The translations under genes were made by a program, and so were the position numbers. 7,905 nucleotides of DNA from Anaerolineaceae bacterium. Its GTDB lineage: Bacteria > Planctomycetota > Phycisphaerae > FEN-1346 > JAACEH01. Positions 2,648 to 7,884 of the stretch are shown here, piece by piece. Location: assembly GCA_011682595.1 (NCBI GenBank), contig JAACEH010000136.1:1-7905 (forward strand), given 5' to 3'. The notes beneath the pieces were generated by a model, which worked only from the letters and a program-made list of their open reading frames with translations, was not told the origin of the DNA and did not search any database. Every line of letters starts with the position of its first letter. The stretch's first letter is position 1.

Positions 2648-3160
2648 TCAGCAGAAACTGTCGTAGCGAACCACCTCCTCCAGCGGCTTCCTCGGGCGGG
2701 CCTGCGGCGATTCGCCGGGATAGCCCAGCGGAAGAACGTGCGCCGCCACGACTCCTTCGGGCAGGCCGACGACGCGGCCAACCTTGTCGGCCTCGAACGC
2801 TCCGATCCAGCAGGCGCCCAGTCCCAGAGCCACCGCCGCCAGTGTCATGTGGTCCACCGCGATTGACGTGTCGACCGCCCCGCCGCGCAGGCCGCTGCGC
2901 ATCGTCCGCTTGGCATCGGTCGTGCAGATCACCAGCACCACCGGAGCAGTGGCCACGAAGCTCTGGTTGCAGCAGGCCTCGACCAACTTCTCCCGCCGGG
3001 CCGCATCGCGGACCACCACGAAAATCCACTCCTGCCGGTTGTTGCCGCTCGGGGCCAGACGCCCGGCCTCCAGAACCGCCTGCAACTTTTCGTCCTCCAC
3101 CGGGCGATCCTCGTAAACCCGAACGCTGCGCCTCTGCCTGATTGCTTCCATGACATCCAT
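2648..3160 (-). CDS. Nitroreductase family protein (FMN-dependent oxidoreductase)
   Basis: This 170-residue protein belongs to the nitroreductase family: cytoplasmic flavoenzymes that use FMN and NAD(P)H to reduce nitro, quinone or related substrates, usually as dimers. Family blocks appear in order. RQRRSVR at residues 8-14 is the N-terminal FMN-phosphate-binding segment. LAPSGNNRQEW at 35-45 is the second flavin contact. A mid-protein segment ends in AVALGLGACWIG, and a C-terminal LPLGYPGE segment precedes the Lys/Arg-rich tail typical of the short forms. The length is normal for the compact subgroup. The open frame extends upstream to 3259, but the start at 3160 is preceded by AAAGGAG with 8 bases of spacing and places the conserved motif at the usual distance, so the upstream part is treated as leader. 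The natural substrate cannot be deduced. It appears to be a single-gene unit with hairpins on both sides. Confidence 0.93.
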   Translation of the reverse strand: MDVMEAIRQRRSVRVYEDRPVEDEKLQAVLEAGRLAPSGNNRQEWIFVVVRDAARREKLVEACCNQSFVATAPVVLVICTTDAKRTMRSGLRGGAVDTSIAVDHMTLAAVALGLGACWIGAFEADKVGRVVGLPEGVVAAHVLPLGYPGESPQARPRKPLEEVVRYDSFC

Positions 3161-3167
3161 TTCCGCC

Positions 3168-3174
3168 GCTCCTT
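3168..3174 (-). promoter_or_regulatory. Ribosome binding site setting the nitroreductase start
   Basis: On the minus strand AAAGGAG lies 8 bases before the ATG at 3160. This decides between that start and the in-frame upstream ATG at 3259, which has no comparable motif. Confidence 0.75.
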
Positions 3175-3285
3175 TCCGGTCACCCGAGTAAACCATCACT
3201 AACGGTTCCAGTTCACCCTCTTTCCATTTCCCTTTCAGACTACACGACACCGACCGCAAAATCCAGTCGCTACCCGAACCAGGCA

Positions 3286-3360: not shown

Positions 3361-4443
3361 CTAATCCGGCCGCTTGCCCAGGGTGACCTCGACCTGGATT
3401 TCCCTGTTCTTATTCCCCTTGCCGGCCCGCCTGATCTTCAGATTGACGAGGTCTCCGGGCCGCTTGTCCTCCAGGAAATCGACCAGGTCGGCGAACGATT
3501 CGATTTTCTGCTCGTCGGCCTTGATGATGACGTCGCCGGCCCGCAGGCCGGCCCTTTCGGCGGCGCTGTCCGGGGCGACGGCCAGGATGCGGCAGGCGTC
3601 GGCCATGTCGTCGCGAACGACGCCCAGGAAGGCTCGTTCGGCGAGTTCCCTGATCGGCGGATCAGGATTCTCCCGGGCCCGTTTCAACAACGCCGGCAGC
3701 AACTCCACCGGCAGGGCGAGATTCAACGCGGTCTCGGTCTCGCCGTGACGTTGCGGCTTGGTGAGAATGCCCACCACCCGTCCGCGGCTGTCGGCCAGGG
3801 CGCCGCCTTCGCTGCCGGCGTTCACGGTGGCATCGGTCAGCAGCAGATCGCCGGTGTAGCGGAGCCCGGTGCGCACCTTGCCCCGGCCGGCCAGGACCCC
3901 GGCACTGACGCTGGCCGAGCTGAGGCGCTTCATGTCCGAACCGATCGGGTAGGCGACCGAGGCCACCCAGTCCCCGGGGGCAAGGTCCTTGCTCGAGCCC
4001 AGGGTAACCGCAGGCCAGGTGCGCTCGGGCGAAGGGCGGGGCGGCGGCGGGGTCTTCTTCTGTTTCTCGGGGCCGGCCTTGGTGATAACGTCGCCGGGAG
4101 TTTCCTCCGGCGCCGGGTCGGTGATGATCTGCAGAATGGCCAGCCCGATCTTCTTGTCGCGGACCAGCACGCGGGCTCTTGTCTGCGGCTGGTCGGGCAG
4201 GTACAGCAGGTGCTCGTTCCGGCTGATGATGCCGAGGTCGGTGACCACCAGGCCGTCGGCCGAGACGATCAGGCCGCTGGCGTGCCGCGAGCCGTCGAAA
4301 ATGCGGACCGCAGCCGGGCCGACCCGGGCGTAAATCTCGGTGAACGGGTGGCTGACGCCCTCGCTTGCCGCCGCCAGGGGCCATGTCGCCAGCCAGACGA
4401 GCACAAGGGCCAGGGTCGTGATGGGAACGATTCTCTTTCTCAT
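3361..4443 (-). CDS. Catalytically inactive HtrA-like (S1C) protein with PDZ domain
   Basis: From the ATG at 4443 this is a 360-residue exported protein. MRKR, a hydrophobic core and an AAA site near residue 26 form a signal peptide. A trypsin-like domain (about 30-250) and one PDZ domain (about 271-358) follow. It aligns by eye with the neighbouring protease, but every catalytic position is changed. The His of TNFHV is Gly71 (TDLGII). The Asp of GDIAL is Gly100 (IGLAI). The Ser of GNSGGP is Glu212 (GSEGGA). The structural glycines remain, so the fold is probably kept and peptidase activity lost. A Pro/Lys-rich linker of about 35 residues (109-143, with KKTPPPPRPSPERTW) is inserted between the two half-barrels. 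It could be a chaperone, adaptor or regulator of the active partner; this is inference. It lies 44 bases or so after that partner's stop, likely in one operon. An ATG two codons upstream (4449) is possible, but AGGA is correctly spaced only for 4443. Confidence 0.9.
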   Translation of the reverse strand: MRKRIVPITTLALVLVWLATWPLAAASEGVSHPFTEIYARVGPAAVRIFDGSRHASGLIVSADGLVVTDLGIISRNEHLLYLPDQPQTRARVLVRDKKIGLAILQIITDPAPEETPGDVITKAGPEKQKKTPPPPRPSPERTWPAVTLGSSKDLAPGDWVASVAYPIGSDMKRLSSASVSAGVLAGRGKVRTGLRYTGDLLLTDATVNAGSEGGALADSRGRVVGILTKPQRHGETETALNLALPVELLPALLKRARENPDPPIRELAERAFLGVVRDDMADACRILAVAPDSAAERAGLRAGDVIIKADEQKIESFADLVDFLEDKRPGDLVNLKIRRAGKGNKNREIQVEVTLGKRPD

Positions 4444-4493
4444 GGGCATCCTGCATCAAGAGCGCGGTCATGGGGCAACCGGGCCGAAGTTAA

Positions 4494-5600
4494 TTACTGG
4501 TCGGGCTCCTGGTTTTCTTGCGGTTCGTCCTGCTGCTCGGGCGACTGCTTTTCGGTGTCATCCTGATCGGGTTCATCCTTTTCGGGTTCGCCCTGATCTT
4601 GGTCACCGTCGTCGCGGTCCTTGTCGGCGCCTTCGTCCTGGTCGTCGTTGGCTTTCGGCGGCGACGTCCCGGCGGCCCGCTCGGCTATCCGCAGGGCCGC
4701 CACGGACTGGATGCCGCCGAGTTGAACTGTCCTGGTCATCACTTTCCCGTCACGGCGCAGGCTGATCTTGACCCGTCTTCCGGCGGGCCGGGTCTGCACG
4801 AAGTTCCTCAGTTGTCCGGGCCCTTGAATCCGCCGGCCGTCCAACTGCAGCAGGACGTCCCCCTCTTTGAGGCCGAAAATCTCGGCTGGAGATTCGTCGC
4901 GAATCGACTTGATCATCAGGCCACCGTCCTTCAGATCGGTCTCGTAAACGCCGAGGTAACCGCGGTCCACCTCATGGCCGGCCTTCAAGTCGTCGAGGAA
5001 CATCTTGATCGAATCGATGGGCACGGCGAAACCGATGCCGGCGTTGATGCGCCGCCAGGACATTCCCCTGACTCGCCGGGCGGCGATGCGACCGTTGATG
5101 CCCACCAGTTGGCCTTGCATGTTAAACAGCGGCCCGCCGGAGTTGCCGGGGTTCAGGGCCGCGTCGATCTGAATGGCGTCGGCGTAGATGAGGTTCTGCC
5201 GCAGCAGCCCGCCGCCGGGCAGGTAGCGCTGCAGCCCGCTCACCACACCCAGGCTGACCGTGGGTCGGAAGTCGGTGGCCAGCATGAAGGGGTTGCCCAT
5301 GGCGATGACCCACTGGCCGACCTGCAGGGCGTCGCTGGAGCCCAGCGGAGCGAAGGGCAGGGGCTCGTCGCTGTCGATCTTGATCAGTGCGATGTCGCCG
5401 GTGCGATCGAGTCCGCAGAGTCGGGCCTCCAGGACTTTTCCTCCGGGGCGGCCGACGCGCAGGTTGGGGGTCTTGCGGGTAACGTGGAAATTGGTCAGGG
5501 CGTAGCCGTCGCTGCTGATGATGACGCCGCTTCCCGTGCCGGGAGACAACTGTTTGGTGCGATCGTTGACCCGAAAGACGCTGATCACCGTCGGCGTCAT
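4494..5600 (-). CDS. HtrA/DegP-like serine protease with PDZ domain and acidic tail (N-terminus probably frameshifted)
   Basis: A trypsin-like serine protease of family S1C, which degrades or refolds damaged proteins outside the cytoplasm. Numbering from the ATG at 5600 (368 residues), the triad is H39 in TNFHV, D69 in GDIAL and S154 in NPGNSGGPL. The protease domain ends near residue 200. One PDZ domain covers about 213-300 (RGYLGVY, then SPAEIFGLKEGDVLLQLDG). Residues from about 318 to the end are low complexity, almost all Asp, Glu, Gln, Lys and Pro, and strongly acidic. The ATG at 5600 gives no signal peptide and starts inside the domain. Upstream codons in this frame still read like HtrA (SAAEKVQQQRIELIQR) until a TGA at 5661-5663, with no start codon between. 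A signal peptide lies just upstream in another frame (5597-5764), so the intact gene probably began at 5764. First gene of a likely two-gene operon. Confidence 0.88.
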   Translation of the reverse strand: MTPTVISVFRVNDRTKQLSPGTGSGVIISSDGYALTNFHVTRKTPNLRVGRPGGKVLEARLCGLDRTGDIALIKIDSDEPLPFAPLGSSDALQVGQWVIAMGNPFMLATDFRPTVSLGVVSGLQRYLPGGGLLRQNLIYADAIQIDAALNPGNSGGPLFNMQGQLVGINGRIAARRVRGMSWRRINAGIGFAVPIDSIKMFLDDLKAGHEVDRGYLGVYETDLKDGGLMIKSIRDESPAEIFGLKEGDVLLQLDGRRIQGPGQLRNFVQTRPAGRRVKISLRRDGKVMTRTVQLGGIQSVAALRIAERAAGTSPPKANDDQDEGADKDRDDGDQDQGEPEKDEPDQDDTEKQSPEQQDEPQENQEPDQ

Positions 5601-5764
5601 GCGCTGGATGAGTTCGATCCGCTGTTGCTGGACCTTCTCCGCCGCAGAGGGCCGTCCACCTCATCGGCCCGGCAGGGGGATGGCCCGACCAGGATGGCGG
5701 CGACCGAGCAGGCCCATGCCGCCAGTGCCGCCAAGACAGGCCACTTGTCGCTCAGGATTGTCAC
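5597..5764 (-). pseudogene. Out-of-frame signal-peptide segment of the HtrA gene
   Basis: A 55-codon frame runs from GTG at 5764 to TGA at 5599-5597. Its first 36 or so residues form a clean signal peptide: MTILSDKWPVLAALAAW, a hydrophobic core, then CRADEVDG. After that the sequence becomes RRRRSSNSGSNSSSA, which does not look like protein, while the frame one base back gives RPSAAEKVQQQRIELIQR and runs into the protease. A single missing base between about 5640 and 5663, or a -1 ribosomal shift, would join the two. Its TGA overlaps the ATG at 5600 as ATGA, so translational coupling is an alternative, though this would leave the protease without a signal peptide. GGGAG lies 11 bases before the GTG. 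A sequencing or assembly error is the simplest explanation. Confidence 0.6.
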
Positions 5765-6069: not shown

Positions 6070-6888
6070 ATGTTTGGCAAGTTATCGATGGCCACCGCGG
6101 TCGGTCTGGGCTTTCTGTTGCCTCTGGTGTTGGCCGGCCGGGCGATAGCCGAGGAGAACGACCCTGGTGGGGAGACCAAGCAGAACAAGAAAAAGGTCGA
6201 CAAGTACCTGGGCATCGACTGGGGTGACGACCAGAAGAAAGACGACAAGAAGGAGGCCGATGATCCCAACGCGGCCTCCCCTTCGAGAGAGGTCGATCTG
6301 ACGACGGTCCTGAGCGGGCCTCAGGCCAAGCGTCTGGCGGCGATCAAGAAAAAGGTCGCCAAGGCCGACAAGCTGGCCGAGTTGGCCGCCAAGACACTGG
6401 CCGGGCAAACCAAGGGCGTCAAGAAATCCATGGCGATTCGCCAGTACGACGGCGCCTCGGCCATCTTCAAGAAGGCCATGGCCGACATCGAGAAGCTGGC
6501 CAGGTCGATCAACGACGACGATACGCGGCTGACGCTGTTGCGGGAGTACGGTGACAAGTACAAGAGGCAGGCCTGCGAGTTGCTGTGCAAGGCCGGCCTG
6601 GCGGCCATCAAGACGGCCGGCAACAAGGTGGACAACATCAAGACCGCGGTCAAGTACTTCAAACGGGCCCGGAAGATCGATCCGACATATCCCGGCATCG
6701 CCGAAGGGATTGCCGCCGCTCGGTCGGCCTACAAGGACATCACGACGCGCCTGGCCGAGGCCAAGAATCGCAGTTCCGGCGGCGGCGGCGGCGACACCAC
6801 GCCCCCGGATCGCGGACGCGAGGACGAACAGCAAGGGCGCGAGGATCGCACTCAGGATGGCCGCGAATACGAGCGAGACACCCACTAG
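6070..6888 (+). CDS. Exported Lys-rich alpha-helical protein of unknown function
   Basis: I do not recognise this 272-residue protein. It starts with a clear signal peptide: K4, a hydrophobic core at about 8-23, and AIA before a likely cut at residue 27, followed by EEND. Residues 28-75 are charged and probably disordered (DDQKKDDKKEADD). Residues 80-230 look almost wholly helical, rich in Ala, Lys and Leu. AVKYFKRARKIDPTYPGIAEG (about 193-213) resembles the second half of a tetratricopeptide (TPR) unit, so a TPR-like or helical-hairpin fold is possible. Two Cys at 169 and 173 lie close together in ACELLC. A GGGGG run at 237-241 leads into an Arg/Asp/Glu-rich tail (DRGREDEQQGREDR). It forms a single-gene unit with a strong ribosome binding site and a terminator right after it. 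A scaffold or binding role outside the cytoplasm is a guess. Codon use looks native. Confidence 0.85.
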   Translation: MFGKLSMATAVGLGFLLPLVLAGRAIAEENDPGGETKQNKKKVDKYLGIDWGDDQKKDDKKEADDPNAASPSREVDLTTVLSGPQAKRLAAIKKKVAKADKLAELAAKTLAGQTKGVKKSMAIRQYDGASAIFKKAMADIEKLARSINDDDTRLTLLREYGDKYKRQACELLCKAGLAAIKTAGNKVDNIKTAVKYFKRARKIDPTYPGIAEGIAAARSAYKDITTRLAEAKNRSSGGGGGDTTPPDRGREDEQQGREDRTQDGREYERDTH

Positions 6889-7077: not shown

Positions 7078-7884
7078 TTGGCGGAACCCGACGAAAGAAA
7101 AATGAGTCTGGGCGAACACCTGGAGGACCTGCGCCGCCGGGTGCTCCTGGCCCTGGCCGGGCCGCTGGTCGGCTTCGTCGTCTGCTATGTGTTCTTCAGG
7201 AACCACCTGCTGTACGCCATCCTCAATCCGCGTTTCCCGACCTTCCTGCCGGTCAAGCCGGTCGAGCGGGCCTTCAACATGGCCAACCCATACGACGTCT
7301 TCATCACCATGATGTTCACCTCGCTGATCGTCGGTTGCATTGCGACCTCGCCCTGGTCGATCTATCACATCTGGTCTTTCATCTCCGGCGGGCTGTACCC
7401 CAAAGAGCGGCGCTACGTCCGCAGTTTCGGCGGCTTCAGCGTGGTGCTGTTTCTGTCCGGGGCGGCCTTCTTCTATTTTCTCGTTTACCCGATGACGGTC
7501 AGCTTCCTTTACGGCTTTGCGGCCGAATACAATGCGTTTATCGCTCGAACGGCCGGCCAAGGGGCGACCATCAACCCGGACACCCTGCTGGGCGGCTACG
7601 TCAACTTCGTCCTGTTGCTGACGCTGGTCTTCGGGGTCATGTTCCAGTTGCCGCTGGTTGTGCTCTTCCTGGGCAAGATCGGGCTGGCCGACGTCGGAAC
7701 GTTTCGCCACTATCGCCGGCACGTGTTGCTGGGCCTGGTGGCCCTGGCCGCCCTGGTGACGCCGCCCGACGTGTTCAGCCAGGTGGCCCTGGCCCTGCCC
7801 ATGTGGCTGCTCTATGAAATCGGTGTCCTGATCCTGTGGATCTCCGAGCGCCGCAAACAGCGAGCCGACGCCGAACAATCCTGA
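7078..7884 (+). CDS. tatC: Sec-independent (twin-arginine) protein translocase subunit TatC
   Basis: TatC is the multi-spanning receptor of the Tat system; it binds twin-arginine signal peptides and, with TatA/TatB-type subunits, exports folded proteins across the cytoplasmic membrane. The 268 residues are a usual TatC length. The N-terminal MSLGEHLEDLRRRV (9-22) is the signature cytoplasmic segment, with E13 and E16 in the signal-peptide-binding area. LYPKERR (106-112) matches the conserved first cytoplasmic loop, with E110 at the key Glu. Six membrane segments lie at about 22-40, 73-95, 120-145, 175-199, 212-228 and 230-252. FGVMFQLPLVV (185-195) is the conserved fifth-helix region with Gln190 where E. 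coli has Glu. TPPDVFSQ (218-225) is also typical. The start is TTG, chosen from the AGGAG upstream. It has its own promoter and no tatA/tatB upstream; only 21 bases remain after the stop. Confidence 0.97.
   Translation: MAEPDERKMSLGEHLEDLRRRVLLALAGPLVGFVVCYVFFRNHLLYAILNPRFPTFLPVKPVERAFNMANPYDVFITMMFTSLIVGCIATSPWSIYHIWSFISGGLYPKERRYVRSFGGFSVVLFLSGAAFFYFLVYPMTVSFLYGFAAEYNAFIARTAGQGATINPDTLLGGYVNFVLLLTLVFGVMFQLPLVVLFLGKIGLADVGTFRHYRRHVLLGLVALAALVTPPDVFSQVALALPMWLLYEIGVLILWISERRKQRADAEQS

What the first reader, a model, noticed from the sequence alone, without database searches (positions are those of the whole stretch)
3361..5764. Adjacent active and dead HtrA proteases in one operon
The upstream gene has an intact H39/D69/S154 triad. 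The downstream paralogue keeps the same barrel-plus-PDZ plan but has Gly, Gly and Glu at those three positions. Loss of all three while the structural glycines, PDZ domain and signal peptide stay intact argues for a kept non-enzymatic role rather than decay. HtrA proteins work as trimers or larger cages built through their protease domains, so a dead partner could form mixed assemblies, deliver substrates or restrain the active one. The Pro/Lys-rich insert between half-barrels exists only in the dead copy, and the acidic tail exists only in the active copy. A charge-based contact between them is a speculative but testable idea.
Basis: partly seen in the sequence, partly recalled or inferred. 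Interest (0 to 1): 0.75.

Follow-up and report, generated by a model that had tools for sequence, protein, structure and literature searches.

The report
Active protease with dead partner proteins
In planctomycete bacteria a working quality-control protease is encoded beside one or two look-alikes that have lost the cutting machinery but are kept by evolution, which suggests that these dead copies are working parts of a mixed protease complex.

Summary
In detail: an HtrA/Deg protease with H39/D69/S154 lies 44 nt upstream of a dead paralogue with Gly73/Gly102/Glu214 and an intact barrel and PDZ. In relatives these are the first two genes of a three-gene cassette: active, dead A (the window's copy), dead B (usually Asn, Lys/Arg, Tyr). 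Of 60 loci fetched from one planctomycete class, 56 hold the trio in that order on one strand; 45 of the 60 were chosen because A and B were already adjacent, and 11 of the other 15 hold it. So do 18 of 20 picked among strong phylum-wide hits. Over 397 genomes the active type occurs in 82 and dead B in 81, with 81 shared. Relatives of dead A are under purifying selection. It is fused to the active enzyme in 15 loci, needing at least 5 changes on a tree. No dead B was found in the window. Best explanation: a mixed HtrA oligomer, possibly a 1:1:1 trimer, whose dead subunits assemble or regulate one active subunit. This is inferred. The proposed charge contact is not supported. The window's active gene has an apparent frame break.

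The parts
4494..5600 (-). Active HtrA/Deg (S1C) protease, 368 aa as read from the ATG at 5600; triad H39 (5484-5486), D69 (5394-5396), S154 (5139-5141); protease + PDZ
5601..5764 (-). 5' end of the active gene: GTG start and signal peptide readable from 5764 in a frame different from the protease frame; the protease frame is open up to 5660 but has no start upstream of 5600 (apparent frame discontinuity)
   Evidence: relatives P0123 and P0124 carry the matching N-terminus in one frame
4497..4676 (-). Acidic C-terminal tail of the active copy (60 aa, net charge -19)
3361..4449 (-). Dead A pseudoprotease, 362 aa: signal peptide (by eye), chymotrypsin-fold barrel, one PDZ; triad positions Gly73 (4231-4233), Gly102 (4144-4146), Glu214 (3808-3810)
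4021..4122 (-). 34-aa Pro/Lys-rich, net-neutral insert between the two half-barrels of dead A
4342..4344 (-). Phe36 of dead A, at the column where HtrAs often carry an aromatic residue; Arg in every readable row of the active class
   Evidence: the role of this position in the trimer is recalled knowledge

Best explanation
The pair is part of a planctomycete envelope quality-control protease made of non-identical HtrA subunits: one active (ACT), dead A and, in relatives, dead B. The genes are co-transcribed in the order ACT-A-B, each subunit is exported, and the chymotrypsin-fold domains assemble into a mixed HtrA oligomer, most simply a 1:1:1 trimer. In it the dead subunits supply trimer contacts and the cross-subunit loop signals that HtrA enzymes need to switch on, plus extra PDZ domains for substrate capture, while only ACT cuts. 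Shown here: lost triads, conserved gene order, near-perfect co-occurrence in one class sample, purifying selection among relatives, repeated natural ACT-A fusion, preserved barrel in the model. Inferred: co-transcription, export of all three, physical complex, stoichiometry, activation by the dead subunits.
For: Order ACT-A-B on one strand in 56 of 60 fetched class loci: 45 of 45 picked for A-B adjacency and 11 of 15 picked for dead B only; 18 of 20 picked among strong phylum hits. ACT in 82 and dead B (strong cluster, over 220 bits) in 81 of 397 genomes, 81 shared; the one exception, G045, has ACT and dead A with dead A running into the contig end. ACT keeps H/D/S in 55 of 55 readable cases. 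Dead A lacks Ser in all but 2 of the 92 domains tallied (91 by motif, L110 by eye). Dead B is Asn-(Lys/Arg)-(Tyr/Phe) in 54 of 60. Each class is one clade (SH-aLRT: ACT 99, dead A 99, dead B 97). dN/dS for dead A 0.064-0.188, similar to ACT. ACT and dead A are one open reading frame in 15 loci, 6 changes on the tree, 5 forced by well-supported branches, which points to direct contact. Dead A model: pLDDT 84, barrel 2.3-2.4 A from DegP/DegQ over about 190 residues. The column with a frequent HtrA aromatic is Arg in 81 of 81 readable ACT rows but Phe/Tyr/Trp in 50 of 72 dead A and Phe in 130 of 180 dead B rows. Precedent: in human HTRA1 a monomeric inactive mutant and an inactive trimer-forming Ser-to-Ala mutant combine into proteolytically active heterotrimers (PMC11252331, passages).
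Against: No biochemical data. The fused-protein model (pLDDT 73.6, pTM 0.69; 8 of 14 rows cover the second half) does not settle how the domains pack. No dead B was found in the window, so the window shows at most two of three subunits. In G397 dead B stands next to a 21-residue dead-A relic, with ACT about 183 kb away; L189 and L193 show dead B without ACT or A nearby; in six fused genomes (G046, G184, G217, G248, G260, G355) dead B is on another contig. 21 of 125 other HtrA rows also carry Arg at the aromatic column, and 22 of 72 dead A rows have no aromatic there, so Arg alone does not prove failure to homotrimerise. MamO, the nearest precedent, activates its partner through a TauE domain; its protease domain was insufficient (PMC4794232). 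Co-occurrence counts are not phylogenetically independent. dS is 0.7 or more in 28 of 29 pairs, and no pair includes the window itself.
Confidence: 0.55

Rival explanations
1. The dead copies are free-standing substrate receptors or chaperones: separate homo-oligomers that bind unfolded envelope proteins through barrel and PDZ and hand them to the active protease without forming mixed trimers.
For: PDZ domains and barrel are preserved; in six fused genomes dead B is on another contig yet still present. DegP-type chaperone activity without cleavage is general knowledge.
Against: Repeated ACT-A fusion into one chain favours a fixed one-to-one contact over a free-standing receptor. Linkage and order are tighter than a diffusible partner needs.
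Confidence: 0.2
2. The dead copies are repurposed ligand-binding or sensing proteins, as MamO binds metal, whose partnership with the protease is regulatory or merely transcriptional.
For: Dead B replaces the triad by nearly fixed residues (Asn 58 of 60, Lys/Arg 56 of 60, Tyr/Phe 60 of 60), which looks like selection for a particular site rather than simple loss. MamO is a precedent: degenerate site, activation of MamE, metal binding (PMC4794232: passages and section 8).
Against: Dead A varies at its triad positions, unlike a dedicated ligand site. A metal-binding motif was not searched for.
Confidence: 0.13
3. The dead copies restrain the protease: mixed oligomers are less active, and the dead subunits act as built-in inhibitors until a signal removes them.
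For: Fits a pseudoenzyme in the same complex; the fusion, order and co-occurrence evidence does not distinguish activation from restraint.
Against: In HTRA1 mixed trimers the inactive corrector subunit did not interfere with the wild-type enzyme (PMC11252331). Permanent covalent fusion of an inhibitor is less easily relieved.
Confidence: 0.09
4. Dead A in the window is simply a decaying duplicate.
For: All three catalytic positions are lost, and the neighbouring active gene carries an apparent frame break. Selection could not be measured on the window's own copy.
Against: An orthologous clade across a phylum, purifying selection in relatives, intact frame, barrel and PDZ.
Confidence: 0.02

Closest known systems
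MamE/MamO of magnetotactic bacteria (PMC4794232; passages and section 8 read)
   Same: Active HtrA (MamE) with a degenerate-site HtrA paralogue (MamO) encoded in the same magnetosome island; the dead protein is needed for the active one's proteolysis.
   Different: MamO activation needs a C-terminal TauE transporter domain and it binds metal; no fusion of the two is described in what I read. Here an exported pseudoprotease with a PDZ, usually two dead partners, in planctomycetes.
Plant Deg7 (PMC3473262, passages read); yeast Nma111/Ynm3 as a similar tandem is recalled, not tested
   Same: One chain with an active protease domain and a degenerate one; the degenerate domain is reported to be involved in trimerization of AtDeg7. 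The 15 fused planctomycete loci have active then dead.
   Different: Deg7 has four PDZ domains and is eukaryotic; here the two fused proteins scanned have two PDZ stretches, most loci keep separate genes, and a further separate dead subunit exists.
Plant Deg5/Deg8 hetero-oligomer (PMC4877387 and PMC3640471, passages read)
   Same: Non-identical HtrA subunits in one complex; described in 2016 as the only Deg proteases so far known to form hetero-oligomers.
   Different: Built of homotrimers; Deg5 lacks a PDZ domain and detectable activity but still has its catalytic His in the structure; not a three-gene cassette.
Engineered human HTRA1 mixed trimers (PMC11252331, passages read)
   Same: An inactive subunit rescues an assembly-defective subunit that still has its active site, in heterotrimers.
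   Different: Engineered point mutants, not natural paralogues.

Membership tests
Active HtrA/Deg (S1C) peptidase | Chymotrypsin-fold domain followed by PDZ | tested here: met
Active HtrA/Deg (S1C) peptidase | His-Asp-Ser catalytic triad | tested here: not met
   Dead A: Gly73/Gly102/Glu214. Met for the window's active copy. Dead A is therefore filed as a pseudoprotease relative, not a peptidase
MamO-type pseudoprotease | Degenerate HtrA encoded with an active HtrA | tested here: met
   Window genes 44 nt apart; 56 of 60 fetched class loci
MamO-type pseudoprotease | C-terminal TauE transporter domain | tested here: not met
   Dead A ends shortly after the PDZ (residues 274-354 of 362); no further Pfam domain
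MamO-type pseudoprotease | Surface di-histidine metal site | not tested
   No metal-site search was made
Deg7-type tandem | Active plus degenerate protease domain in one chain | tested here: not met
   Separate genes in the window; met in 15 related loci
Deg7-type tandem | Four PDZ domains | tested here: not met
   One PDZ per window protein; two PDZ_2 stretches in fused L095 and L088, the two fused proteins scanned of 15
Hetero-oligomeric HtrA | Physical complex of non-identical subunits | not testable with these tools
   Only indirect support: fusion, order, co-occurrence

The most novel reading that the evidence does not exclude
Planctomycetota carry an obligately heterotrimeric HtrA: one active subunit that has lost the usual aromatic trimer contact (Arg in 81 of 81 readable rows) and cannot assemble or fire alone, plus two different, permanently dead subunits that complete the ring. 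This would be a phylum-wide HtrA design with a single active site per trimer, in which pseudoenzymes are structural and allosteric subunits.
Probability: 0.33. Interest if true: 0.87.

Novelty: new variant of a known kind. Interest (0 to 1): 0.72.

Why it matters
HtrA proteases are understood mainly as homo-oligomers whose identical subunits switch one another on. A cassette spread through a phylum, with one active and two conserved dead paralogues and repeated fusion, would be a natural experiment in how many active sites an HtrA assembly needs and what pseudoproteases do for their active kin. It is directly testable with three co-expressed proteins, and the natural fusions give ready-made constructs. 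It also gives planctomycete genes annotated as 'serine protease Do' a different likely meaning: two of the three cannot be ordinary serine proteases.

Tried and rejected
Rejected.

Decay of the dead copy: disfavoured on clade, selection and fusion evidence.

Neighbourhood function (tatC, 272-aa gene, S24-type regulator, nitroreductase, sulfatase): in the fetched stretches of the 60 class loci tatC occurs only in L072 and L073, the 272-aa gene only in L073, the S24 gene only in L072 and L073, the nitroreductase in none; the sulfatase has one weak hit, L087. The cassette itself, not the neighbourhood, is the conserved unit.

Viral contigs scanned with the dead copy: no relative. A first alignment for the fused model put single dead-A rows on the wrong half and was not used (A9); a 14-row alignment replaced it (A10). 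A direct heterocomplex prediction was not possible with the tool.

A regular-expression tally of dead-B Ser-site residues gave 3 odd letters of 89; on recheck all three are motif misfires and read NYGG. In the same tally the one unread dead-A domain of 92 is L110, which reads Pro.

Rows dropped or chosen: the 60 class loci are 45 of the 46 genomes with A and B adjacent (G394 was not fetched) and 15 of the 28 with dead B only; the later 20 and the phylum 20 were hand-picked, the latter from about 65 strong hits. The fusion tree left out L107, cut at a contig edge. dN/dS used 29 pairs with enough shared dead-A words; ratios were undefined for 3 ACT, 2 dead A and 1 dead B values. The class tree used 25 of 61 loci, window included, plus 16 database proteins.

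Whether this is in print: searches of open-licence PMC papers; in the titles and abstract beginnings listed, and in the passages read of eight papers, I saw no report of an HtrA trio or of planctomycete HtrA pseudoproteases. Inactive HtrA or serine-protease homologues as such are known: 42 in 91 prokaryote genomes (PMC2605481), some cyanobacterial Degs (PMC4877387), several plant Degs (PMC3473262). Planctomycetes are known to have many PDZ proteins (PMC6411480). Subscription papers and preprints are not covered.
Full report
What is in the window. The 7905-base window carries, on the minus strand, an HtrA/Deg protease (4494-5600) and 44 nt further a second HtrA-like gene (3361-4449). Both match Pfam Trypsin_2 and PDZ. 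The first has H39/D69/S154, invariant in the 27 aligned members of its family. The second has Gly73, Gly102 and Glu214 at the aligned positions. Around them lie, divergently, a 272-aa protein without a Pfam or NCBIfam match (6070-6888) and tatC (7078-7884), and downstream a nitroreductase (2648-3259) and a sulfatase-family protein (45-2297). The window's own genome is not held. Its nearest named relative, L001, is titled a Phycisphaerae bacterium, and that class lies in Planctomycetota.

A flaw in the active gene. The finding's end coordinate 5764 is a GTG start with a plausible signal peptide, but that frame does not continue into the protease. The protease frame is open from 5660 and has no start codon before the ATG at 5600. 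Relatives P0123 and P0124 begin with a similar signal peptide and read on in one frame. Whether this is a real mutation or an assembly or sequencing error cannot be told here.

Orthologues of the dead copy. A search of 5.8 billion proteins gave 15 further orthologues at 250-585 bits, then a drop to 101 bits. In the 16 the Ser position is Glu in 15 and Gln in one; the His position is never His (Gly, Asp, Ser, Arg or Ala); the Asp position is Gly in 4, Lys in 4, Gln in 3, Glu in 3 and Asp in 2. So the conserved loss is the nucleophile, not the exact Gly/Gly/Glu set. For 9 of the 16, counting the window, a protein of the active family has the same longest-contig length, suggesting shared contigs.

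A third gene. In the two named genomes found to encode a close orthologue, L001 and L002, a third HtrA paralogue follows the dead copy at once. I call it dead B: there it reads Asn at the His position, keeps Asp, and has Tyr for Ser. In two more distant genomes the same three genes recur. I therefore surveyed 397 genomes of that class, drawn from a larger group. Dead A was found in 53 (E <= 1e-45). Dead B matched in 238 at the same cut-off, of which 81 form a strong cluster over 220 bits (next 195.7); only these 81 are counted as dead B. In 46 of the 53, dead A and dead B are adjacent, A first.

The cassette. I fetched 60 class loci: 45 of the 46 with A and B adjacent and 15 of the 28 genomes with dead B only. 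56 hold all three classes (all 45, and 11 of the 15), all 56 in the order active, dead A, dead B on one strand. Triads: the active copy is H-D-S in 55 of 55 readable cases (one cut at a contig edge). In the 56 dead A domains the Ser position is Pro 36, Ala 15, Glu 3, Gln 2; the His and Asp positions could be read in 41 and were never His or Asp. In 60 dead B domains the positions are Asn 58, Lys/Arg 56 and Tyr/Phe 60. Of the four exceptions, L119 and L125 are cut by contig ends; L118 has a broken dead A at a contig end; L117 (G397) has dead B beside a 21-residue dead-A remnant, with ACT about 183 kb away. Over 92 dead A domains tallied later, two keep a Ser but lack His and Asp (L118; L165; tally).

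Co-occurrence. Searching the same 397 genomes for the active class gave 82 genomes at E <= 1e-65, one match each. 81 of them are the 81 dead-B genomes; one has ACT only, none dead B only, 315 neither. The exception, G045, has ACT and dead A, with dead A running into the contig end. These counts are not phylogenetically independent, and each search scored only four or five candidates per genome, so some members may be missed. Across the phylum, dead B was sought in 387 genomes and matched in 210 at E <= 1e-50, of which 65 form the strong cluster (264 bits or more). In the 30 best loci dead A lies directly upstream in 27. Of 20 regions hand-picked from that cluster and fetched with longer flanks, 18 hold the full trio in order on one strand; L189 and L193 show dead B alone. 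In part of these phylum-wide loci dead A shows a His and an Asp at or next to the triad positions and lacks only the Ser, so loss of all three is not universal.

Natural fusions. In 15 loci the active enzyme and dead A are one uninterrupted open reading frame, active half first. On a tree of 76 active domains this label needs at least 6 changes, 5 forced by well-supported branches; some may be fissions. Repeated fusion of exactly these two partners is the strongest hint of physical contact. In six fused genomes dead B is on another contig but still present.

Age and selection. On a 90-row tree the active, dead A and dead B sequences each form one clade (SH-aLRT 99, 99, 97), with broadly similar but not identical internal branching. 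In 29 pairs of related loci dN/dS is 0.064-0.188 for dead A, 0.036-0.221 for the active copy and 0.037-0.225 for dead B. Only one pair (L104/L105) has low dS (about 0.2; dead A ratio 0.148); in the others dS is 0.7 or more, often above 1, so the values are rough. No held DNA was close enough to include the window itself.

Structure. The window's dead A models at pLDDT 84; its barrel superposes on DegP and DegQ at 2.3-2.4 A over about 190 residues. The fused L095 protein models at pLDDT 73.6, pTM 0.69, which does not establish how the two barrels pack. At an N-terminal column where HtrAs often carry an aromatic, the active class has Arg in 81 of 81 readable rows, dead A Phe/Tyr/Trp in 50 of 72, dead B Phe in 130 of 180, and 125 other HtrA rows Phe or Tyr in 67 and Arg in 21. 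That this column lies in the trimer contact is recalled from HtrA structures; [quoted passage not shown]

Mechanism. I favour a mixed HtrA oligomer. In human HTRA1, a monomeric inactive mutant and an inactive, trimer-forming Ser-to-Ala mutant assemble into active heterotrimers (PMC11252331, passages), so dead subunits can switch on a partner that cannot assemble alone. In magnetotactic bacteria the pseudoprotease MamO is needed for MamE proteolysis, although this requires its TauE domain and its protease domain is insufficient (PMC4794232). In plant Deg7 the degenerate protease domain is reported to take part in trimerization (PMC3473262).

Limits. No dead B was found beside dead A or elsewhere in the window; it may lie elsewhere in the genome, be lost, or be unneeded in this lineage. 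All functional statements are inferred. In the open-licence papers searched I saw no description of this cassette; subscription papers and preprints were not covered.

Noticed in passing
window 5601-5764 (-): Signal-peptide frame of the active HtrA (GTG at 5764) does not continue into the protease frame; relatives read in one frame.
   Followed up: partly
window 6070-6888 (+) and L001 3512-4336 (-): Exported-looking, Lys-rich, 272-aa protein without a Pfam or NCBIfam match next to the cassette; a relative (228 bits) sits in the same place in L073/L001.
   Followed up: partly
window 7078-7884 (+), L072, L073: tatC lies beside the cassette in the window, L072 and L073, but was not found in the fetched stretches of the other 58 class loci.
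   Followed up: yes
L002 10356-11342, L072, L073: An S24-type (LexA/CI-like) regulator lies downstream of the cassette in the window's closest relatives.
   Followed up: no
L137-L161, e.g. L137 529-2598 (-): In many phylum-wide hits (genomes of about 4.7-9 Mb) the dead B frame is about 640-770 aa, often with a C-terminal extension that weakly matches a second PDZ region.
   Followed up: no
L011 20-1462 and L012 2523-3965: Active copies outside the window's clade carry a long C-terminal extension with almost no Pfam match (one sub-threshold DUF4292 hit in L012, E 0.0084).
   Followed up: no
alignment A1, column of window Asp71: 13 of the 16 closest dead A proteins have a His two residues before the catalytic His position (TH motif); the window and its two nearest relatives have Asp there.
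   Followed up: no
L117 6792-8098 and G397 C1:3783162: One genome keeps dead B beside a 21-residue dead-A relic, with ACT about 183 kb away; the stretch next to it contains masked bases.
   Followed up: partly
L118 and L165: Two dead A proteins retain a Ser at the nucleophile position while lacking His and Asp.
   Followed up: partly
L137, L138, L139, L182-L184 and similar: Some phylum-wide dead A proteins show a His and an Asp at or next to the triad positions and lack only the Ser.
   Followed up: no
dead B domains of the 60 class loci: Dead B replaces the triad with nearly fixed Asn, Lys/Arg, Tyr, more uniform than expected from simple loss.
   Followed up: partly
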